A program made the translations under genes and the position numbers. Under the pieces are notes generated by a model that ran no database searches, had not been told where the DNA came from, and saw only the letters and a list, made by a program, of their open reading frames with translations. A stretch of DNA of 54,537 nt from an uncultured Myxococcales bacterium (GTDB taxonomy: Bacteria; Myxococcota_A; Polyangia; Polyangiales; Polyangiaceae): the NCBI GenBank assembly GCA_937902985.1, contig CALFNG010000161.1:1-54537 (forward strand), in the 5' to 3' direction. Positions 2,362 to 54,537 of this stretch are shown here, one piece after another; the stretch's first letter is position 1; the number at the start of each line of letters is the position of its first letter.

Positions 2362-2961
2362 GTGCGCCGCTGGCCGATCCTCGTCGCCGTCGCCCTCGTC
2401 GGGTGCCTCGTGGCCGCGGGCGAGCACCTGATCAATCGGCGCCCGTTCCCGGCCGATACGACCCCCGAAGGCGCGTACCTGCGCCTCGTGCTGGCCGTGA
2501 GCGAGCACCGCGTACGAGACGCGTTCCCCTATCTCGAGACCGAAGCGCAGTGGGCGTCGTACACGATTCGCGACCAGCGCAAGGAGGCGTGCGAGCGAGT
2601 CCGCGCGAGTTATCCCTCGGATGAGCGGCAAAGGCTGCTCGCCGGGTGGATCGAGGAAGCGGGCGCCCACGACGGGGCCGACGTATTCGCCCTCCTCGCC
2701 CAGCAGCGGGGGTGGATCGCTCGCCTCGAGCGCGATCTCTCGGGCGCCGCGGGCGCCGAGATCCAGGGGGAGCGAGCGACGGTGATCACGGGGCGCGGGA
2801 CCCGCTACGCATTTCGCCGGCGTGAGAACGGGATCTGGGGCCTGACGACGTTCACCGCAGAACTCGCCGCGGAAGCCGAGCGGGCCGCCCGCGACCTCGA
2901 GGTCGTCGAGCGAGCCGCAAAGGACTACGACGGCGCGCGAAGGCCGGACGCCGGCCTCTAG
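2362..2961 (+). CDS. Hypothetical membrane-anchored or lipoprotein
   Basis: A 199-residue protein from a GTG start, divergent from the glycosyltransferase gene by 40 bases. The N-terminus (RRWPILVAVALVGCLVAAG) is either a lipoprotein signal with LVGC as lipobox (Cys15) or a single membrane anchor. The rest is a charged, probably helical and beta periplasmic domain with the segment TTPEGAYLRLVLAVSEHRV near residue 35, reminiscent of small periplasmic proteins of the NTF2-like/DUF4878 type. I cannot assign a family with confidence. Codon use matches the neighbours, so it is likely a real gene. Confidence 0.65.
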   Translation: MRRWPILVAVALVGCLVAAGEHLINRRPFPADTTPEGAYLRLVLAVSEHRVRDAFPYLETEAQWASYTIRDQRKEACERVRASYPSDERQRLLAGWIEEAGAHDGADVFALLAQQRGWIARLERDLSGAAGAEIQGERATVITGRGTRYAFRRRENGIWGLTTFTAELAAEAERAARDLEVVERAAKDYDGARRPDAGL

Positions 2962-2976
2962 GAGCGCTCTTCGCGG

Positions 2977-3411
2977 CTATTCGGCGGCCTGGGCGGCCTT
3001 CGAGCGGAGGTCGATCCACGAGCGACCGGCGGGCGCTCCGTCTTCGCGCGGGAGCGCGAGCTGGAGCCAGCCCTTCTCGAGCACCTGGCCGAAGGGGCTG
3101 CGCGCGCCGTCCCACCCGGCGCGCTGATCCACGACGTTGGTGAAGCCCGCGGCGACCAGCGCCTGGGCGGCCTTCAGGCTCCGCACGCCGCCCTTGCAGC
3201 CGAGGATGATTTTAGCGTCGTCGGCGAAGGCCGCCTTCATCGCGCGGATGAAGTCGGGGTTGTTGCCGTTCCGGAGCTGCCACGGCACGTTCTGCGAGCC
3301 GGCCGGGTGACCGGCCTCGAACTCTTCGACGGTCCGCACGTCGACGTACGTCCACCCGTCCGAAAGCCTGGCGCTCGCGTCTGCAGAGGAGATTCGCTCG
3401 ATGTCGCTCAT
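2977..3411 (-). CDS. Rhodanese-like sulfurtransferase
   Basis: A single-domain rhodanese of 144 residues. The active-site loop CKGGVR starts at Cys72 and matches the six-residue CxxGxR loop that holds the persulfide; the CH2A-like element YVDVRTVEEFEAGHPAGSQN lies near residues 22-41. Such proteins transfer sulfur from thiosulfate or protein persulfides in the cytoplasm, and the physiological acceptor is not evident here. The ATG at 3411 is chosen because it directly precedes the domain. On the gene's strand a TATAGT-like -10 box lies about 15 bases upstream of the ATG, so the transcript may be nearly leaderless (weak evidence). Confidence 0.88.
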   Translation of the reverse strand: MSDIERISSADASARLSDGWTYVDVRTVEEFEAGHPAGSQNVPWQLRNGNNPDFIRAMKAAFADDAKIILGCKGGVRSLKAAQALVAAGFTNVVDQRAGWDGARSPFGQVLEKGWLQLALPREDGAPAGRSWIDLRSKAAQAAE

Positions 3412-3499
3412 GGCGGTACGTCTACTATAACGGACAACGCGCGCTCGTCGAGGGGGAAAGGAGCGAATTCTTGCCTGCGCTCGGGTTGACGAGGTCGCC

Positions 3500-6061
3500 T
3501 CAGCGGCACACCGGATGCGCGGCGAGCGCCTCCTCCGCCGCAGCCCGAGCGTAAGGCGGCGCCGAAGCAGCCAGAAGAGGCGACAGACGAGCGCGCAGGT
3601 CGCGGGGCTGGAGCGCCGCCAGCCCGAGGAGGGCCCCGTAGCCGATCTGCCGCGCGTCTTCTTCGGCGGTGGGGCTCGCGAGAGCGCGCGCATACGCCGT
3701 CAACCGCTCGATCGTGTCGCGATCGTCGTCGCACACGCCCCCGAGCGCGCGCGCCGCGGCTGCGCGCACGGTCGGCTCTTCGCCGGGGTCGTCGAGGCGA
3801 TCGTTGATGGGGCCGCGCCACGACGAGGCCCGTCGCTTCGCGAGCGCGGCGAGGGCCCCTTCGCGGACGCGCACGGACCCGTCGCGAAGGGCCGCCCCCA
3901 GCGCGGCGTCGGTCTCCCTCGACGGCGGCGCGTTCACCAGCAGCGCGATGCCCTGGGCCTTCACGAACCACCACTCGTCTTGCCGGAGACGCCCGTCCTT
4001 CGCGAGGGCATCGACGGCGGCGCGAACGGCGTCGGCGGACGCCGTGCTCGAGAGCGCGCCGAGGGCAGCTTCGCGCACGCGCGGCTCCGGATCGCGGGCA
4101 GCCGCCACCAGCGGAGCGAGCGCCTCGGGCAGCCCTCGCCCGAGGCCCGCCGCACGAGCGCGAACCGGCCAGTCGGGGTCGCGTGCGATGGCGTCGGCGA
4201 TGCGCGCGGCCGCGGCTCGGTCGCCAGCGCGCGCCAGCTCGCCGAGCGGCCCGAGCACGAGGTAGCGCAGTCGCATGGGTGGCGCACCGGTCAAGAGCTC
4301 GGTGACCGTCGCCTCGCTCTCGGCGGGCGCTTCGGCCACGCGATCGCCGGCGGAGCGCAGGAGCTCGAGACGCCCGGCCGCGCTGAGCTTCGGGTCGCCG
4401 AGGAGCGCCGCGAGGGGGCCAGGCGGCGCCGTGACCAGCGCGTGGGCGAACGAGTCGCGAAGGATCGCGCGTGTATCATGGTCGTCTTCTCCCGTGGACG
4501 CGAGAGCGTCCGCGAGGGGCGCGAGGGCCAGCGTGGGCGCGATCGACGCCAGCACCGGCGCCAGGCACGCGCGAGACCCGGCGTCGTCTCGAAGCCGCTG
4601 CGCCAGCGCCGGGGCGCCGCCCCTGCAGCGTTCGAGCTTCTCGCGCGCCTTGCGAGGCGCCTGCCCCTCGGGCTCGCAGAGCCCACGGGCGAGGAGAGGC
4701 GCGGATTCTTCGCACTTCTCGTGGCTCGTTGCGACGTCGATGGCCAGGGCCCGTCCGCGAGGGTCGAGGCCGTCGTACGCGTTCGTCACGGCAGCGAGCG
4801 CCCCCTCCCCCGCGCGCTCGAGGAGCTGCGCGGCAGCGACCCCGCGCTCGCTCGAGAGTCGCTTGGCCACGTCGTCGAGGGTGGCGCCGGGCGCGTCGAA
4901 CTCGCTGTAGGCCCGGAGCTCGGCGACGCCGACGTCCGGGTGCGCGAGACCTCTCGTGAACGCGCCGTCGAGCACGAGCGCCATACACGAAGTCTCGAGC
5001 GGCTTCGGGAAGACGACCTCGTACGTCGAGCCGGCCTTCAGCCACCCGTCGGTGGGCAGCGTCACCTCGACCACGCCCGTCGTCGTCACCAGATAGAACG
5101 TCTTGGGTCCGGCGCGGTTCGCCGTCTTCGCATCGGCCGCGCCGCTGGCGGCGTCGGGCGGAGACACGATCACGTCGACGCGGGTGATGGGCACGCCCCT
5201 CGGGGCCGACATCACGACGAACTCGCCCTGCCCGACGCCGGGTCGCGCCTCGCGCCAGATCGTGGCCGGGTCGCCGTCGGTGAGCTCGGCGCCTCGAGAC
5301 CCGACGACGCTCGAACCTCGCGCGACGAGCAGGCGCGCGAGCGGCGCGTCGGTCGCCGCGGTCTTGGCCGTCACGACGGTCGCGGTGACCGCCTCGGCGC
5401 TCGCCTGCTGCTCGGCGCTCAGCCGCTGCGCGGTCGCCGGCCGGAGCTCGAGCGAGCCCGGATAGAGCGCGAGTGGATCGAGCAAGGTCGCGGACTGGCC
5501 GCAGATTCCCAGGTCTTCGCGCGTGTCACCGACCAGGATGAAGCTCGTGGCGCCGTTGGGGACGACGCGGATCGCCTTGCCGGTTCGCTCGCCGGGGTCG
5601 CCGGCGGTCGGCCCCGTCATGCCCGCGAAGATCGGGTCTCTGCGGCCTGGCGCGAAGATGCCCTCCCAGGCGGGGCCGTTCTCGCCATCGGCATCGCGCG
5701 TCGGCACGCGAACGTGAACGACCTGCTTGCCCTCGCCGATGGCGACGACCTCGACCACGACTTGGCTCTCGGGCGGAAGCGCGCCGCGCTGGATCGGAAC
5801 CGGCGATTCGACGCCGTTCGCGTTCACCACGCCCCGCGCGAGGTCGACCTTGAGGTCGAGCGCTGGCAGGCCGCCGCCGGCAGGCACCGAGGCGGAGACC
5901 TGCGCGGGCGCCGGAGCAGGGGCGGTCGCGGCCGACGCGGTCGCGGCCGCCGGCCCCGCAGGCGATCCCGGCGGCGGCGACGCGAGGAGAGGCGCCTCGA
6001 GAAGAGAAGGGGCTGCGAAGAGGAGCGCGACGGCGAACGCGACCGACCTGGCGTGGGGCAT
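3500..6061 (-). CDS. Secreted HEAT-repeat protein with discoidin-like N-terminal domain
   Basis: An 853-residue exported protein. Residues 1-30 form a signal peptide (hydrophobic run AFAVALLFAAPSL) followed by a Pro/Ala/Ser-rich stretch. Around residues 250-400, an element with ELTDGDPATIWREA resembles the ligand loop of discoidin/F5-8-type-C carbohydrate-binding domains. From about residue 410 to the end the sequence is a run of roughly 30-residue helical repeats (ARAAGLGRGLPEALAPLV, VREAALGALSS, VREGALAALAKR), typical of HEAT repeats. No catalytic motif is visible. A periplasmic or surface binding/scaffold role is inference. The start at 6061 is preferred over an upstream ATG because it begins directly before the signal peptide. 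Confidence 0.8.
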   Translation of the reverse strand: MPHARSVAFAVALLFAAPSLLEAPLLASPPPGSPAGPAAATASAATAPAPAPAQVSASVPAGGGLPALDLKVDLARGVVNANGVESPVPIQRGALPPESQVVVEVVAIGEGKQVVHVRVPTRDADGENGPAWEGIFAPGRRDPIFAGMTGPTAGDPGERTGKAIRVVPNGATSFILVGDTREDLGICGQSATLLDPLALYPGSLELRPATAQRLSAEQQASAEAVTATVVTAKTAATDAPLARLLVARGSSVVGSRGAELTDGDPATIWREARPGVGQGEFVVMSAPRGVPITRVDVIVSPPDAASGAADAKTANRAGPKTFYLVTTTGVVEVTLPTDGWLKAGSTYEVVFPKPLETSCMALVLDGAFTRGLAHPDVGVAELRAYSEFDAPGATLDDVAKRLSSERGVAAAQLLERAGEGALAAVTNAYDGLDPRGRALAIDVATSHEKCEESAPLLARGLCEPEGQAPRKAREKLERCRGGAPALAQRLRDDAGSRACLAPVLASIAPTLALAPLADALASTGEDDHDTRAILRDSFAHALVTAPPGPLAALLGDPKLSAAGRLELLRSAGDRVAEAPAESEATVTELLTGAPPMRLRYLVLGPLGELARAGDRAAAARIADAIARDPDWPVRARAAGLGRGLPEALAPLVAAARDPEPRVREAALGALSSTASADAVRAAVDALAKDGRLRQDEWWFVKAQGIALLVNAPPSRETDAALGAALRDGSVRVREGALAALAKRRASSWRGPINDRLDDPGEEPTVRAAAARALGGVCDDDRDTIERLTAYARALASPTAEEDARQIGYGALLGLAALQPRDLRARLSPLLAASAPPYARAAAEEALAAHPVCR

Positions 6062-50848: not shown

Positions 50849-52819
50849 CTACGCGGTGCCCGCGCTGGCTTGCGACACCTGGGCGAGGAGGGCGGTGATA
50901 CGCCGCGCGAAGCCGTTGGGGTCTTCGATCGGGGCGCCCTCCGCGACGAGGGCCTGGTCGTAGAGGACTTCGATCCAGTCGGCGACGTGCGCGGCGTCCC
51001 GCTCGCCTCGCTCGGCGAGCGTCTTCAGGCTGCGGACGATCGGGTGCTCGGGGTTGAGCTCCAGGATGCGCGACGACTTCGGCACGTCGCGGCCGGCTTC
51101 GCGAAGGAGGCGCTCGACGTACCCGTGCGGGCCACCGCTCGCGAGCACGAGGCATGCAGGAGAATCGGTCAGCCGGTCGCTCGGCCGCACCTCGGTGATG
51201 CGGTCGCCGAGCACTGCGCGAATGCGCGCGAAGAGCGGCCCCAGCGCCTCGGTGTCGGCTATGCGGGCCGTCTTCTCCTCGTCGGTCGCATCGATCTTCA
51301 GATCGGCGCGCATCGCCGAGACCAGGTTCTTCCCCTCGAACGTCCGGAGCGATTCGGTCGCCCACTCGTCGATCGGATCCGTCATGAGGAGCACTTCGTA
51401 TCCGCGCTTCCGCAGGCCCTCGAGGTGCGGCGCGCCTTCGAGCGCTCGGCGCGACTCGCCGATGGCGTAATAGATCGCGTCCTGGCCTTCTTTCATGCGC
51501 TTCACGTAGTCCGCGAGCGAGACGTTGCCTTCGCCGGCGGTGGTCTCGTAGCGGAGCAGCTTCGCCAGCCGGTCTTTGTATTCGAAGTCGCTCGCGACAC
51601 CTTGCTTGAGGAGCGGCCCGAACGCCTTCCAGGCGACGGCGTAGTCGTCGGGGCGTTCACTCGCCAGAGCTTCGAGCGCATCGAGCACGTGCTTCACGAG
51701 TTGCTTCTTGATCGTCCGGACGGCGGGCGACTGCTGGAGCACGTCGCGCGAGACGTTGAGCGGCAGGTCGTCGGAATCGATGACGCCGACGATGAATCGC
51801 AGCCACTCGGGAACGAGCTCTTCGCAATCCTCCATCACGAGGACGCGCTTCACGTAGAGGCGCACCCCGCGGTGCTTCATCCCTATGCGCAGCTCGAACG
51901 GCTTGTCGCGCGGAACGTAGATCAGGCCGGCGAACTCCTGCGTTCCCTCGACCTTGAAATGCGCGCGCGCGATCGGCGCTTCGCCCTCGGGGGCGTGCGC
52001 CAGGTGGCGATAGAACTCGCTGTATTGTTCTTCGGTAATCTCACCCTTGGGCCGCTGCCAGAGCGCGCTCGCGCGGTTGATCGTCTCGTACTCGGCTACG
52101 GCCTCGGCGCCGCTCGCCTCGGTCCCGTCGCTCCCCTTGCTGCCCTTGCTGCCCTTGCTCCCCTTGCGCACCAGGAGCTGGATCGGATGGCTCACGTAGT
52201 CCGAGTAGCGCTTCACGAGATCGCGGAGACGCCACTCGTCGAGGAACTCTTTCTGATCCTCGCGGAGGTGCAGCGTGATCTCGGTGCCTCGGGCGGTTCG
52301 CTCGGCGGGCGCGACGGTGAACGTGTCTTTCGCCTCCGACACCCACACGTGCGCGACCTGGCCCGCGCCCGCGGCGCGGGAGACGACCTCGACCCGGTCG
52401 GCCACGAGATACGCGCTGTAAAAACCGACGCCGAACTGGCCGATGAGGCGAGCGTCCTTCTGGCCGCGCTGCGCGAGCTGCTCGAGGAAGGCCTTCGAAC
52501 CCGATCGGGCGACGGTGCCCAGGTCGCTAACGAGCTCTTCTTCGGTCATCCCCGCGCCGGTGTCCTCGATCGTCAATGTCCCGCGGTCCCGGTCGGCCCG
52601 GATCCGGATGGCGAGGGTCGTGTCGCCCTCGAACAGGTCCGGCTCGGTGAGCGCACGGAAACGTAGCTTGTCGAGCGCGTCCGAGGCGTTCGAGACGAGC
52701 TCGCGGAGGAAGATCTCCTTGTGGCTGTAAAGCGAGTGGATCACCAGATGGAGGACCTGGCTCACCTCGGCCTGGAACGCGTGCGTGGCGGGGGCGGCGG
52801 CGGCGGTTTCTTCGGGCAT
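50849..52819 (-). CDS. htpG: Molecular chaperone HtpG (Hsp90)
   Basis: A 656-residue Hsp90. The ATP-binding motifs are intact: [28 protein letters not shown] and [17 protein letters not shown]; the middle domain has [13 protein letters not shown], and the C-terminal dimerisation domain is present. A GTG 12 bases upstream is an alternative start. A (KGS)4 repeat in the linker after the N-domain is encoded by tandem 9-bp units (52131-52166). It refolds client proteins in the cytoplasm, an ATP-driven general chaperone. Confidence 0.97.
52131..52166 (+). repeat. Tandem 9-bp repeats in the htpG linker
   Basis: Four near-identical 9-base units (CT[G/C]CCCTTG) encode four KGS tripeptides on the coding strand. 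They fall in the loop between the N-terminal and middle domains of Hsp90, a region of variable length in this family. Multiples of three keep the frame when copy number changes. Confidence 0.85.
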
Positions 52820-52874
52820 GGGCACCGACACCGGTAACGCCTGGCCTCACGGTGTCAACCCGCGCCGCTCACGC

Positions 52875-52948
52875 TAGGAGGCGGTCGCGCATAGCGCGAC
52901 CGCCTCCGTCGTGAGTTCCCAGGACGCGGACGGCTGCGCCGCCGCTAG
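52875..52948 (+). repeat. Flanking inverted repeat, left copy
   Basis: An approximately 74-base element: hairpin, spacer GTCGTGAGTTCC, then CCAGGACGCGGACGGCTGCG/CCGCCGCTAG. The last 30 bases are repeated again directly at 52950-52979. The inverted copy at 54464-54537 differs at one base in the spacer (GAGT/GACT) and in one arm of the hairpin. The two copies bracket exactly the M20 peptidase gene. Confidence 0.85.
52877..52907. repeat. Perfect hairpin in the left inverted-repeat element
   Basis: A 14-base arm GGAGGCGGTCGCGC, loop ATA, and its exact reverse complement GCGCGACCGCCTCC. It belongs to the ~74-base element (52875-52948) whose inverted copy is at 54464-54537. It lies between the start of htpG and the stop of the M20 gene, so it could also act as a terminator for the latter, without a T run. 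Confidence 0.9.
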
Positions 52949-52979
52949 GCCAGGACGCGGACGGCTGCGCCGCCGCTAG
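52919..52979 (+). repeat. Tandem 30-bp direct repeat
   Basis: Two identical copies (52919-52948 and 52950-52979), separated by one base, of the 30-base unit that begins CCAGGACGCGGACGGCTGCG and ends CCGCCGCTAG. Only the left flank carries two copies; the right flank carries one. Confidence 0.9.
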
Positions 52980-53042
52980 ACCAGGCTATTGCGCACGCGG
53001 AAGCGGTTGCTCCCGGCGGAGCGGAGGCCGCGCGGCGCCGCC

Positions 53043-54452
53043 CTACCGCGCGAGGCCGTACACGAGTTCGCGCAGGAACCGCGCGCCGTCGGGCAGCCAC
53101 TGCGATGGGTTGCGCTCGTCGGGGCCGTGCGCCGCGTGGCCGGCGAGCGCCTCGGCCTGGCTGATGGGCGTCACGTCGACGCCGTAGGCGCGAATGCCGA
53201 TGGCCCGCAGATGCCGCGAGTCCGTCGCGCCCGTCCCCAGGGTCGAGACGATCGGGACACCGGGCCACACGGCGTCGACTGCTCTCTTCATGGCTTGCGC
53301 GAACTCGCCGTCGACCGCCGAATACGGCCCGAAGCCGAAGTCGGCCGTGGGCGTGATCTCCACCGACGGATCGCCCATGATCCGCTGCAGCGTCGCCAGC
53401 GTCTGTTCGCGGGTCTCGTCGGGCATGATGCGGCAGTTCACAGTGGCCTCGGCCGTCGTCGGGAGCACGTTGTCTTGCGGGGATCCGAGGAGCTGCGTGG
53501 TCACGCACGTCGTTCGCAGGTGCGCGTTCACGAAGCGCTCCTTCGAGAGAATACGCTCGTCTTCGTCGCTGACCTGCCCCACGCGGGCCACCCGCGCTTC
53601 GACCTCGGCGATCGCGCGCGGCTCGAGCTTTGCGTCCGCGGCGAGCTGATCCTTTGCAGCGGCGATGACGCGCGGAGGGAACCGGAACTCGCCGACCTTC
53701 ACCAGCGCGCGCGACAGGGTCAGCACGGGATCGGAGTCGGTAGGCGGCACCGACGAGTGGCCGCCCTTGCCGCGAACGACGAGTCGATAGCTCTGGAACG
53801 TCTTTTCCGCGGCGCCGAGGCCCACTTGAACGACGTGCTTGCCCTCGTCGTCGAGCCTCACCGAGCCGCCCTCGTTCAGGGCGACCTCGGCGTCGATGAG
53901 GTCTCTGCGGTTCTGCGTCAGCCAGCGGGCGCCCGCGCTCCCTCCGGTCTCTTCGCCGGCCGTCAGGGCGAAGATGACGTCGCGCGAGAGCGCGGGTCTG
54001 GTGCGCCCGATCTCCATGGCCAGCGCGACGATCGCGGCGGCCATTCCCTTGTCGTCGTTGACGCCGCGGCCCCACAGAAAGCCGTCTTTCTCGGTGACCT
54101 GAAACGGCGGTACCGTCCACGGTTGACCCTCGACGGGTACGACGTCGACGTGCGCGAGCAGCAGGAGCGGTCGCCTCGCCCCCGTTCCCTTGTAGCGCGC
54201 GACGAGGTTGCCGCGGCCCGGCGCGCTCTCGACGATCTCCACCGGGAGCCACGCGCGGAGCTGCTCGGCGATGGGCCTCAGCGCGTCGGTCTCGTGGCCG
54301 TGGCTCGTATCGACGGCGACCAGGGCGTTCAGCGACGCGCGCATGGCCCCGACGAACGCCCTGACCGCCGGCGAATCGGCCGATTGCGGAGCGGGCGCGG
54401 GCCTCGCGGCGCAGGACGCGATGGCGGCCACGAGGAGCAGAGGACGGCGCAT
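53043..54452 (-). CDS. M20-family metallopeptidase lipoprotein
   Basis: A 469-residue peptidase. The N-terminus has a lipoprotein signal (LLLVAAIASC, Cys14), so it is probably membrane-anchored in the periplasm. M20 elements: LLLLAHVDVVPVEG (metal-binding His/Asp), WGRGVNDDKGMAAAIVALAM (second Asp), TAGEETGGSAGA (catalytic Glu, metal-binding Glu) and the late GTGATDSRHLRAIGIRAYG. The inserted dimerisation domain (residues ~220-340) is as expected. It resembles carboxypeptidase PM20D1/ArgE-type enzymes that cleave dipeptides or N-acyl amino acids; substrate unknown. The gene is bracketed by inverted repeats and its start lies 12 bases inside the right copy. Confidence 0.92.
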   Translation of the reverse strand: MRRPLLLVAAIASCAARPAPAPQSADSPAVRAFVGAMRASLNALVAVDTSHGHETDALRPIAEQLRAWLPVEIVESAPGRGNLVARYKGTGARRPLLLLAHVDVVPVEGQPWTVPPFQVTEKDGFLWGRGVNDDKGMAAAIVALAMEIGRTRPALSRDVIFALTAGEETGGSAGARWLTQNRRDLIDAEVALNEGGSVRLDDEGKHVVQVGLGAAEKTFQSYRLVVRGKGGHSSVPPTDSDPVLTLSRALVKVGEFRFPPRVIAAAKDQLAADAKLEPRAIAEVEARVARVGQVSDEDERILSKERFVNAHLRTTCVTTQLLGSPQDNVLPTTAEATVNCRIMPDETREQTLATLQRIMGDPSVEITPTADFGFGPYSAVDGEFAQAMKRAVDAVWPGVPIVSTLGTGATDSRHLRAIGIRAYGVDVTPISQAEALAGHAAHGPDERNPSQWLPDGARFLRELVYGLAR

Positions 54453-54463
54453 GGCCCGCGAGT

Positions 54464-54537
54464 CTAGCGGCGGCGCAGCCGTCCGCGTCCTGGGAAGTCA
54501 CGACGGAGGCGGTCGCGCTATGCGCGGGCGGCCTCCT
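54464..54537 (-). repeat. Flanking inverted repeat, right copy (contig end)
   Basis: Reverse complement of the element at 52875-52948. It runs from CTAGCGGCGGCGCAGCCGTC to the last base of the window. The outer hairpin arm is imperfect here (TATGCGCGGGCGGCCTCC), unlike the perfect left hairpin, which may reflect sequencing or assembly difficulty at a palindrome. Confidence 0.85.

What the first reader, a model, noticed from the sequence alone, without database searches (positions are those of the whole stretch)
52875..54537. M20 peptidase gene bracketed by inverted hairpin repeats, contig ends inside one
Two ~74-base elements in opposite orientation flank exactly one gene. Each contains a GC-rich palindrome (14-bp perfect stem on the left). 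This layout could be a small non-autonomous mobile unit carrying a cargo gene, an invertible segment, or a dispersed REP-like repeat. The contig terminates within it, which is typical of high-copy repeats.
Basis: partly seen in the sequence, partly recalled or inferred. Interest (0 to 1): 0.6.

Follow-up and report, generated by a model that had tools for sequence, protein, structure and literature searches.

The report
Dispersed CTAG-ended palindromic repeat family
The two inverted 74-base hairpin repeats around the peptidase gene are two of about 46 scattered copies of a small, probably mobile palindromic repeat in this Myxococcota-like genome that ends in CTAG and often sits exactly on gene stop codons; the gene between them is most likely there by chance.

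Summary
Two 74-nt elements in opposite orientation lie at 52874-52948 (plus an extra 31-nt unit to 52979) and 54464-54537, and the contig ends inside the second. They do not appear to define a cargo or invertible unit. They belong to a repeat family with 58 copies of the right-hand hairpin at about 46 loci in the 8.3-Mb genome; 14 of these loci lie at contig ends. Chance alone gives about 0.4 pairs within 1.6 kb. The element is CTAG-hairpin1-GTCGTGACTTC-hairpin2-CTAG. It is not found in two congeners, but related versions occur in two MAGs of another genus, with compensatory changes in hairpin 1; in one it forms a 285-bp element with inverted ends. At 24 of 43 loci the terminal CTAG supplies an in-frame TAG stop to a flanking gene (25% of background CTAGs do), and a congener has some of the same gene ends without the element. 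Best reading: a non-autonomous REP/REPIN- or MITE-like element that inserts at CTAG. No Y1 (RAYT) transposase is detectable in any of the three carrier genomes, so the enzyme that moves it is unknown. Ordinary in kind, with an unusual tag and host group.

The parts
52874..52948 (+). Element copy 1: CTAG + hairpin 1 (52877-52907) + linker GTCGTGAGTTC + hairpin-2 unit CCAGGACGCGGACGGCTGCGCCGCCGCTAG (52919-52948)
   Evidence: folds at -51.9 kcal/mol, z -6.1
52949..52979 (+). Extra tandem copy of the hairpin-2 unit (G + 30 nt), ending in CTAG
   Evidence: (D2, 97%)
54464..54537 (-). Element copy 2, opposite orientation, cut by the contig end; CCGCCCGCGC variant shared with copies on C31 and C561
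53043..54452 (-). M20-family peptidase gene lying between the copies; not part of the element
   Evidence: nearest relative in 23 searched genomes is in G012 at 58% identity
50849..52831 (-). htpG (HSP90) gene; copy 1 lies just upstream of its start; context only

Best explanation
The feature is two independent insertions of a short, non-autonomous, dispersed palindromic element. The element is two hairpins facing outward, each abutting a terminal CTAG, joined by a conserved linker (GTCGTGACTTC). It spreads by inserting at the rare tetranucleotide CTAG, leaving CTAG at both ends. A CTAG that is a gene's TAG stop therefore keeps its stop after insertion, and such sites are harmless landing places. 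Shown: dispersal, architecture, CTAG at both ends, excess at stop codons, lack of the element at the same gene ends in a congener, and conserved hairpin pairing across genera. Inferred: transposition by an enzyme acting in trans, of unknown type. The M20 gene is between two copies by chance.
For: Copies: 58 cores, reversed control 0; full and short copies with flanks. Tandem copies share a single CTAG (C561), as expected for insertion into the CTAG of an older copy. Internal-deletion derivatives keep both termini (L024, L026, L030, L068, C31:3238). CTAG is about tenfold depleted in this genome (0.30/kb against 2.8/kb expected), so its presence at the ends is not incidental. Right ends are in-frame TAG stops at 19/34 and left ends at 7/13, against 36/268 background CTAG sides, Fisher p about 2e-9; by locus 24/43 against 34/113 non-intragenic CTAGs, p 0.005. 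Orthologous gene ends in congener G001 without the element: L022/L232, L080/L245, L029/L223, L046/L248. Related elements in G063 and G066, reversed control 0, with hairpin covariation 0.296 against 0.094 shuffled, 0/500; 285-bp inverted-end version in G066.
Against: No transposase with matching ends was found. The Y1_Tnp family (RAYT) is absent from G000, G063 and G066. IS630-type elements in G000 are CTAG-bounded but have different terminal repeats. IS91-type genes show no element at their ends, apart from one remnant. In G000 the two ends are not clear inverted repeats of each other. The window's own two copies are upstream of gene starts, not at stops. Copies with short left ends are heterogeneous and could reflect decay rather than active movement.
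Confidence: 0.82

Rival explanations
1. The 52.87-54.54 kb stretch is a composite mobile unit: two outward-facing copies move the M20 gene as cargo.
For: The outer ends are both hairpin-1 ends, as in a composite transposon. M20 is patchy: no match at E<=1e-40 in either congener, a 58% relative in G012, and in JANYHK a 59% relative next to genes that read by eye like purE/purK rather than htpG.
Against: The two copies are different variants, and the left locus has an extra unit. No second copy of the unit exists: the only other M20 match in G000 is 34% identical. At least one such pair is expected with P about 0.33 by chance. M20 GC 0.707 and GC3 0.89 are close to htpG 0.675 and 0.88.
Confidence: 0.06
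2. The segment is an invertible switch flipped by recombination between the inverted 63-nt arms.
For: Arms are 98% complementary and 1.5 kb apart.
Against: The same element is scattered at about 46 loci, nearly all with no inverted partner nearby. The M20 gene is whole inside the segment, so inversion would only change its orientation. A site-specific recombinase at the locus was not searched for.
Confidence: 0.04
3. The hairpins are primarily regulatory RNA or transcription-stop elements kept by selection at gene ends, and their mobility is ancient or absent.
For: Stable folds (z -4.6 to -6.1), compensatory changes between genera, and excess at gene 3' ends.
Against: Two congeners lack the family; conserved stems are also expected of transposase-recognised ends; there is no T-tract after the hairpins, and the window copies precede gene starts.
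Confidence: 0.1
4. A narrower form of the best explanation: the element is a REPIN mobilised by a RAYT that is missing from this MAG because it sits between repeats on a short unbinned contig.
For: Outward-facing hairpin doublet, tetranucleotide tag, tandem arrays, and stop-codon provision all match REPs (PMC3733652, PMC3116915). Contigs do break at repeats.
Against: All three carrier genomes lack Y1_Tnp although 38 of 108 family genomes have it, including a congener without the repeat. The tag is CTAG, not GTAG.
Confidence: 0.25

Closest known systems
GTAG-tagged REPs and REPINs (REP doublets moved by RAYT)
   Same: 20-40 nt hairpins tagged by a tetranucleotide, outward-facing doublets with conserved spacer, singlets as remnants, tandem arrays, location between convergent or codirectional genes, and termini often giving the TAG stop of flanking ORFs (PMC3733652, PMC3116915).
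   Different: Tag is CTAG at both ends; about 46 loci only; no Y1 transposase found in any of three carrier genomes; Myxococcota-like hosts, not mentioned in PMC3733652.
CGTC-tagged REPs
   Same: Palindromes with no dedicated transposase known (PMC3733652); hairpin 1 here is followed by CGTC.
   Different: Published CGTC stems are 8-9 bp with loops of 4-5; here hairpin 1 is 14 bp with a 3-nt loop in G000. Membership not established.
MITEs of IS630/Tc1-type elements such as RUP and Correia elements (named from memory)
   Same: Short, non-autonomous, dispersed; TA inside CTAG fits TA-type insertion; the G066 version is 285 bp with about 45-nt inverted ends.
   Different: In G000 the two ends are not matching inverted repeats, and the IS630 element found there (C433) has unrelated terminal repeats.
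IS91-type rolling-circle elements
   Same: Tetranucleotide-specific insertion with terminal hairpins (from memory); one G063 copy abuts a remnant transposase.
   Different: No IS91-type gene examined in G000 or G066 has the element at its end.

Membership tests
REP/REPIN | Short tagged hairpins, multi-copy, mostly extragenic | tested here: met
REP/REPIN | GTAG tag at the hairpin foot | tested here: not met
   tag is CTAG in nearly all copies
REP/REPIN | Associated RAYT (Y1_Tnp) in the genome | tested here: not met
   no PF01797 match in G000 (96% complete), G063 or G066; positive controls rang. MAG incompleteness leaves a gap.
REP/REPIN | Doublets of inverted hairpins | tested here: met
   two outward-facing hairpins in each full copy; inverted-end 285-bp form in G066
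CGTC-tagged REP | Stem of 8-9 bp, loop of 4-5, CGTC tag | tested here: not met
   14-bp stem and 3-nt loop in G000 hairpin 1, although CGTC follows it
MITE | Terminal inverted repeats | tested here: inconclusive
   weak in G000; about 45 nt and clear in G066
MITE | Target-site duplication | tested here: inconclusive
   CTAG at both ends, but it cannot be told apart from an element-borne CTAG; congener sites are too diverged for base-level proof
MITE | Parent element with the same ends and a transposase | tested here: not met
   IS630-type and IS91-type ends differ; other transposase families not searched
Rfam RNA families | Match at gathering score | tested here: not met
   only two matches, far below their gathering scores

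The most novel reading that the evidence does not exclude
A family of tagged palindromic repeats that uses CTAG as its insertion site, is moved by an enzyme other than a RAYT, and has made stop codons its preferred safe landing site.
Probability: 0.3. Interest if true: 0.55.

Novelty: new variant of a known kind. Interest (0 to 1): 0.33.

Why it matters
If confirmed, it extends tagged palindromic repeats to a CTAG tag and to a Myxococcota-like group, in genomes with no detectable RAYT. It gives a clean case in which the rarity of CTAG in coding DNA steers a mobile repeat to stop codons. It also explains why this assembly breaks at these points.

Tried and rejected
Cargo or composite transposon and invertible segment: rejected as above. 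Assembly fold-back: rejected because copy 2 has its own variant shared with other loci. RAYT partner: none. IS630 partner: CTAG-bounded but different ends. IS91 partner: suggested by a remnant transposase beside the G063 C240 copy, not borne out at other IS91-type genes. Viral contigs and plasmids: no match. Family-wide BLAST matches of 19-54 nt are mostly GC-rich chance; only the G063 and G066 matches held up. Rfam: nothing. The stop-codon test uses a simple codon model trained on the window and was devised after looking at the copies. Empty sites could be sought in only 60 contigs of one congener.

Full report
Check of the observation. The window is contig C161 of an 8.3-Mb, 563-contig genome; the one named genome with a close M20 relative is a Myxococcales MAG. 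Two elements of 74 nt lie in opposite orientation at 52874-52948 and 54464-54537, with one peptidase M20 gene between them. The left copy has a perfect 14-bp stem. The left locus also has a 31-nt repeat of the right half, 52949-52979. The contig ends within the right copy.

What the element is. Copies read CTAG-GAGGCCGTCGCGC ATA GCGCGACCGCCTCC-GTCGTGACTTC-CCAGGACGCGGACGGCTGCGCCGCCG-CTAG. This is two hairpins, each beside a terminal CTAG (z about -5). The right-hand core occurs 58 times, 29 on each strand, with no match to the reversed control. Collapsed into loci there are about 46, and 14 of these lie at contig ends where about 0.6 is expected, so the contig end here is an ordinary assembly break. 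Other forms are a 30/31-nt hairpin-2 unit alone or in arrays of up to at least four, and copies that keep both ends but have lost hairpin 1. Head-to-tail copies share a single CTAG (C561).

Why the gene is bracketed. With 46 loci in 8.3 Mb about 0.4 pairs within 1.6 kb are expected, P about 0.33 for at least one. The two copies are distinct variants; the right one matches copies on C31 and C561 rather than its partner. M20 has a composition close to its neighbour's. Nothing therefore requires a cargo or inversion model, although M20 itself is patchy among relatives.

Where it inserts. CTAG is about tenfold rarer than base composition predicts (0.30 against 2.8 per kb over 450 kb). Of 134 background CTAGs, 34 are in-frame TAG stops of a coding-like frame, 21 lie inside genes, and 79 are elsewhere. 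Element ends are in-frame stops far more often: 19/34 right ends and 7/13 left ends against 36/268 background sides, or 24/43 loci against 34/113 non-intragenic sites, p 0.005. Part of this follows simply from loss of insertions inside genes. In congener G001, four orthologous gene ends lack the element. In two of them the protein ends at the same codon in both genomes while the stop differs: GCG-TGA in the element-bearing gene against GCG-TAG (L022/L232), and CGC-TAG supplied by the element against CGC-TGA (L080/L245). Those genes were not truncated. The window's two copies are not at stops; they lie upstream of htpG and of M20.

Relatives. Of 108 genomes in the family only G000, G063 and G066 match CTAGGA-N(18-32)-TCCGTCGTGAC, with reversed control 0. 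Hairpin 1 differs between genera but keeps pairing: five pairs change on both sides, covariation 0.296 against 0.094 in shuffles, 0 of 500 (the shuffle control does not remove relatedness). In G066 the same end occurs at both sides of a 285-bp element in inverted orientation, at two loci. By eye, two of these related copies (L112 in G066, L114 in G063) also place the CTAG at an apparent TAG stop.

What moves it. Unknown. REPs are moved by RAYT transposases, but Y1_Tnp is absent from all three carrier genomes while 38 of 108 relatives have it; MAG incompleteness leaves a gap. An IS630-type element in G000 is CTAG-bounded but its ends (CTAGTCTCCCGTCTGAGAA) differ. An IS91-type remnant beside a G063 copy was a lead that did not hold elsewhere. 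Other transposase families were not searched.

Comparison with what is known. Di Nocera et al. (PMC3733652) describe GTAG and CGTC tagged palindromes, doublets with conserved spacers, location near gene 3' ends, and that GTAG REP termini often provide the TAG stop. REPINs (PMC3116915) are inverted REP doublets with singlets as remnants and tandem clusters. The present family works like these but fails two REP criteria tested here, the GTAG tag and an associated RAYT. I therefore describe it as REP/REPIN-like or MITE-like, not as a member. Verdict: a real, ordinary-in-kind dispersed repeat; a new variant with modest interest.

Noticed in passing
L160 (G066:C25) 4411-4695; L158 (G066:C21) from 3308: 285-bp elements with about 45-nt inverted ends starting CTAGGAG-hairpin-CTCCGTCGTGACTG; no search for a parent element in G066 was done beyond Y1 and Y2 transposases.
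   Followed up: partly
L153/L126 (G063:C240), element at C240:4544-4587: A copy lies directly beside a decayed IS91-type (Y2) transposase remnant with an NPHLH motif (PF04986 E=0.0026, below cut-off).
   Followed up: partly
L063 (G000:C433), 52-1238: Complete IS630-type element bounded by CTAG, with 19-nt ends CTAGTCTCCCGTCTGAGAA.
   Followed up: partly
L062 (G000:C175), 2784-3464: ORF next to an IS630-type transposase that reads like a group II intron reverse transcriptase; judged by eye only.
   Followed up: no
window 52112-52165: In-frame 9-nt tandem repeat inside htpG encoding [14 protein letters not shown], an unusual insertion in HtpG.
   Followed up: no
G000, 450 kb sampled: CTAG is about tenfold under-represented (0.30 against 2.8 per kb), and a quarter of the remaining sites are TAG stops.
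   Followed up: yes
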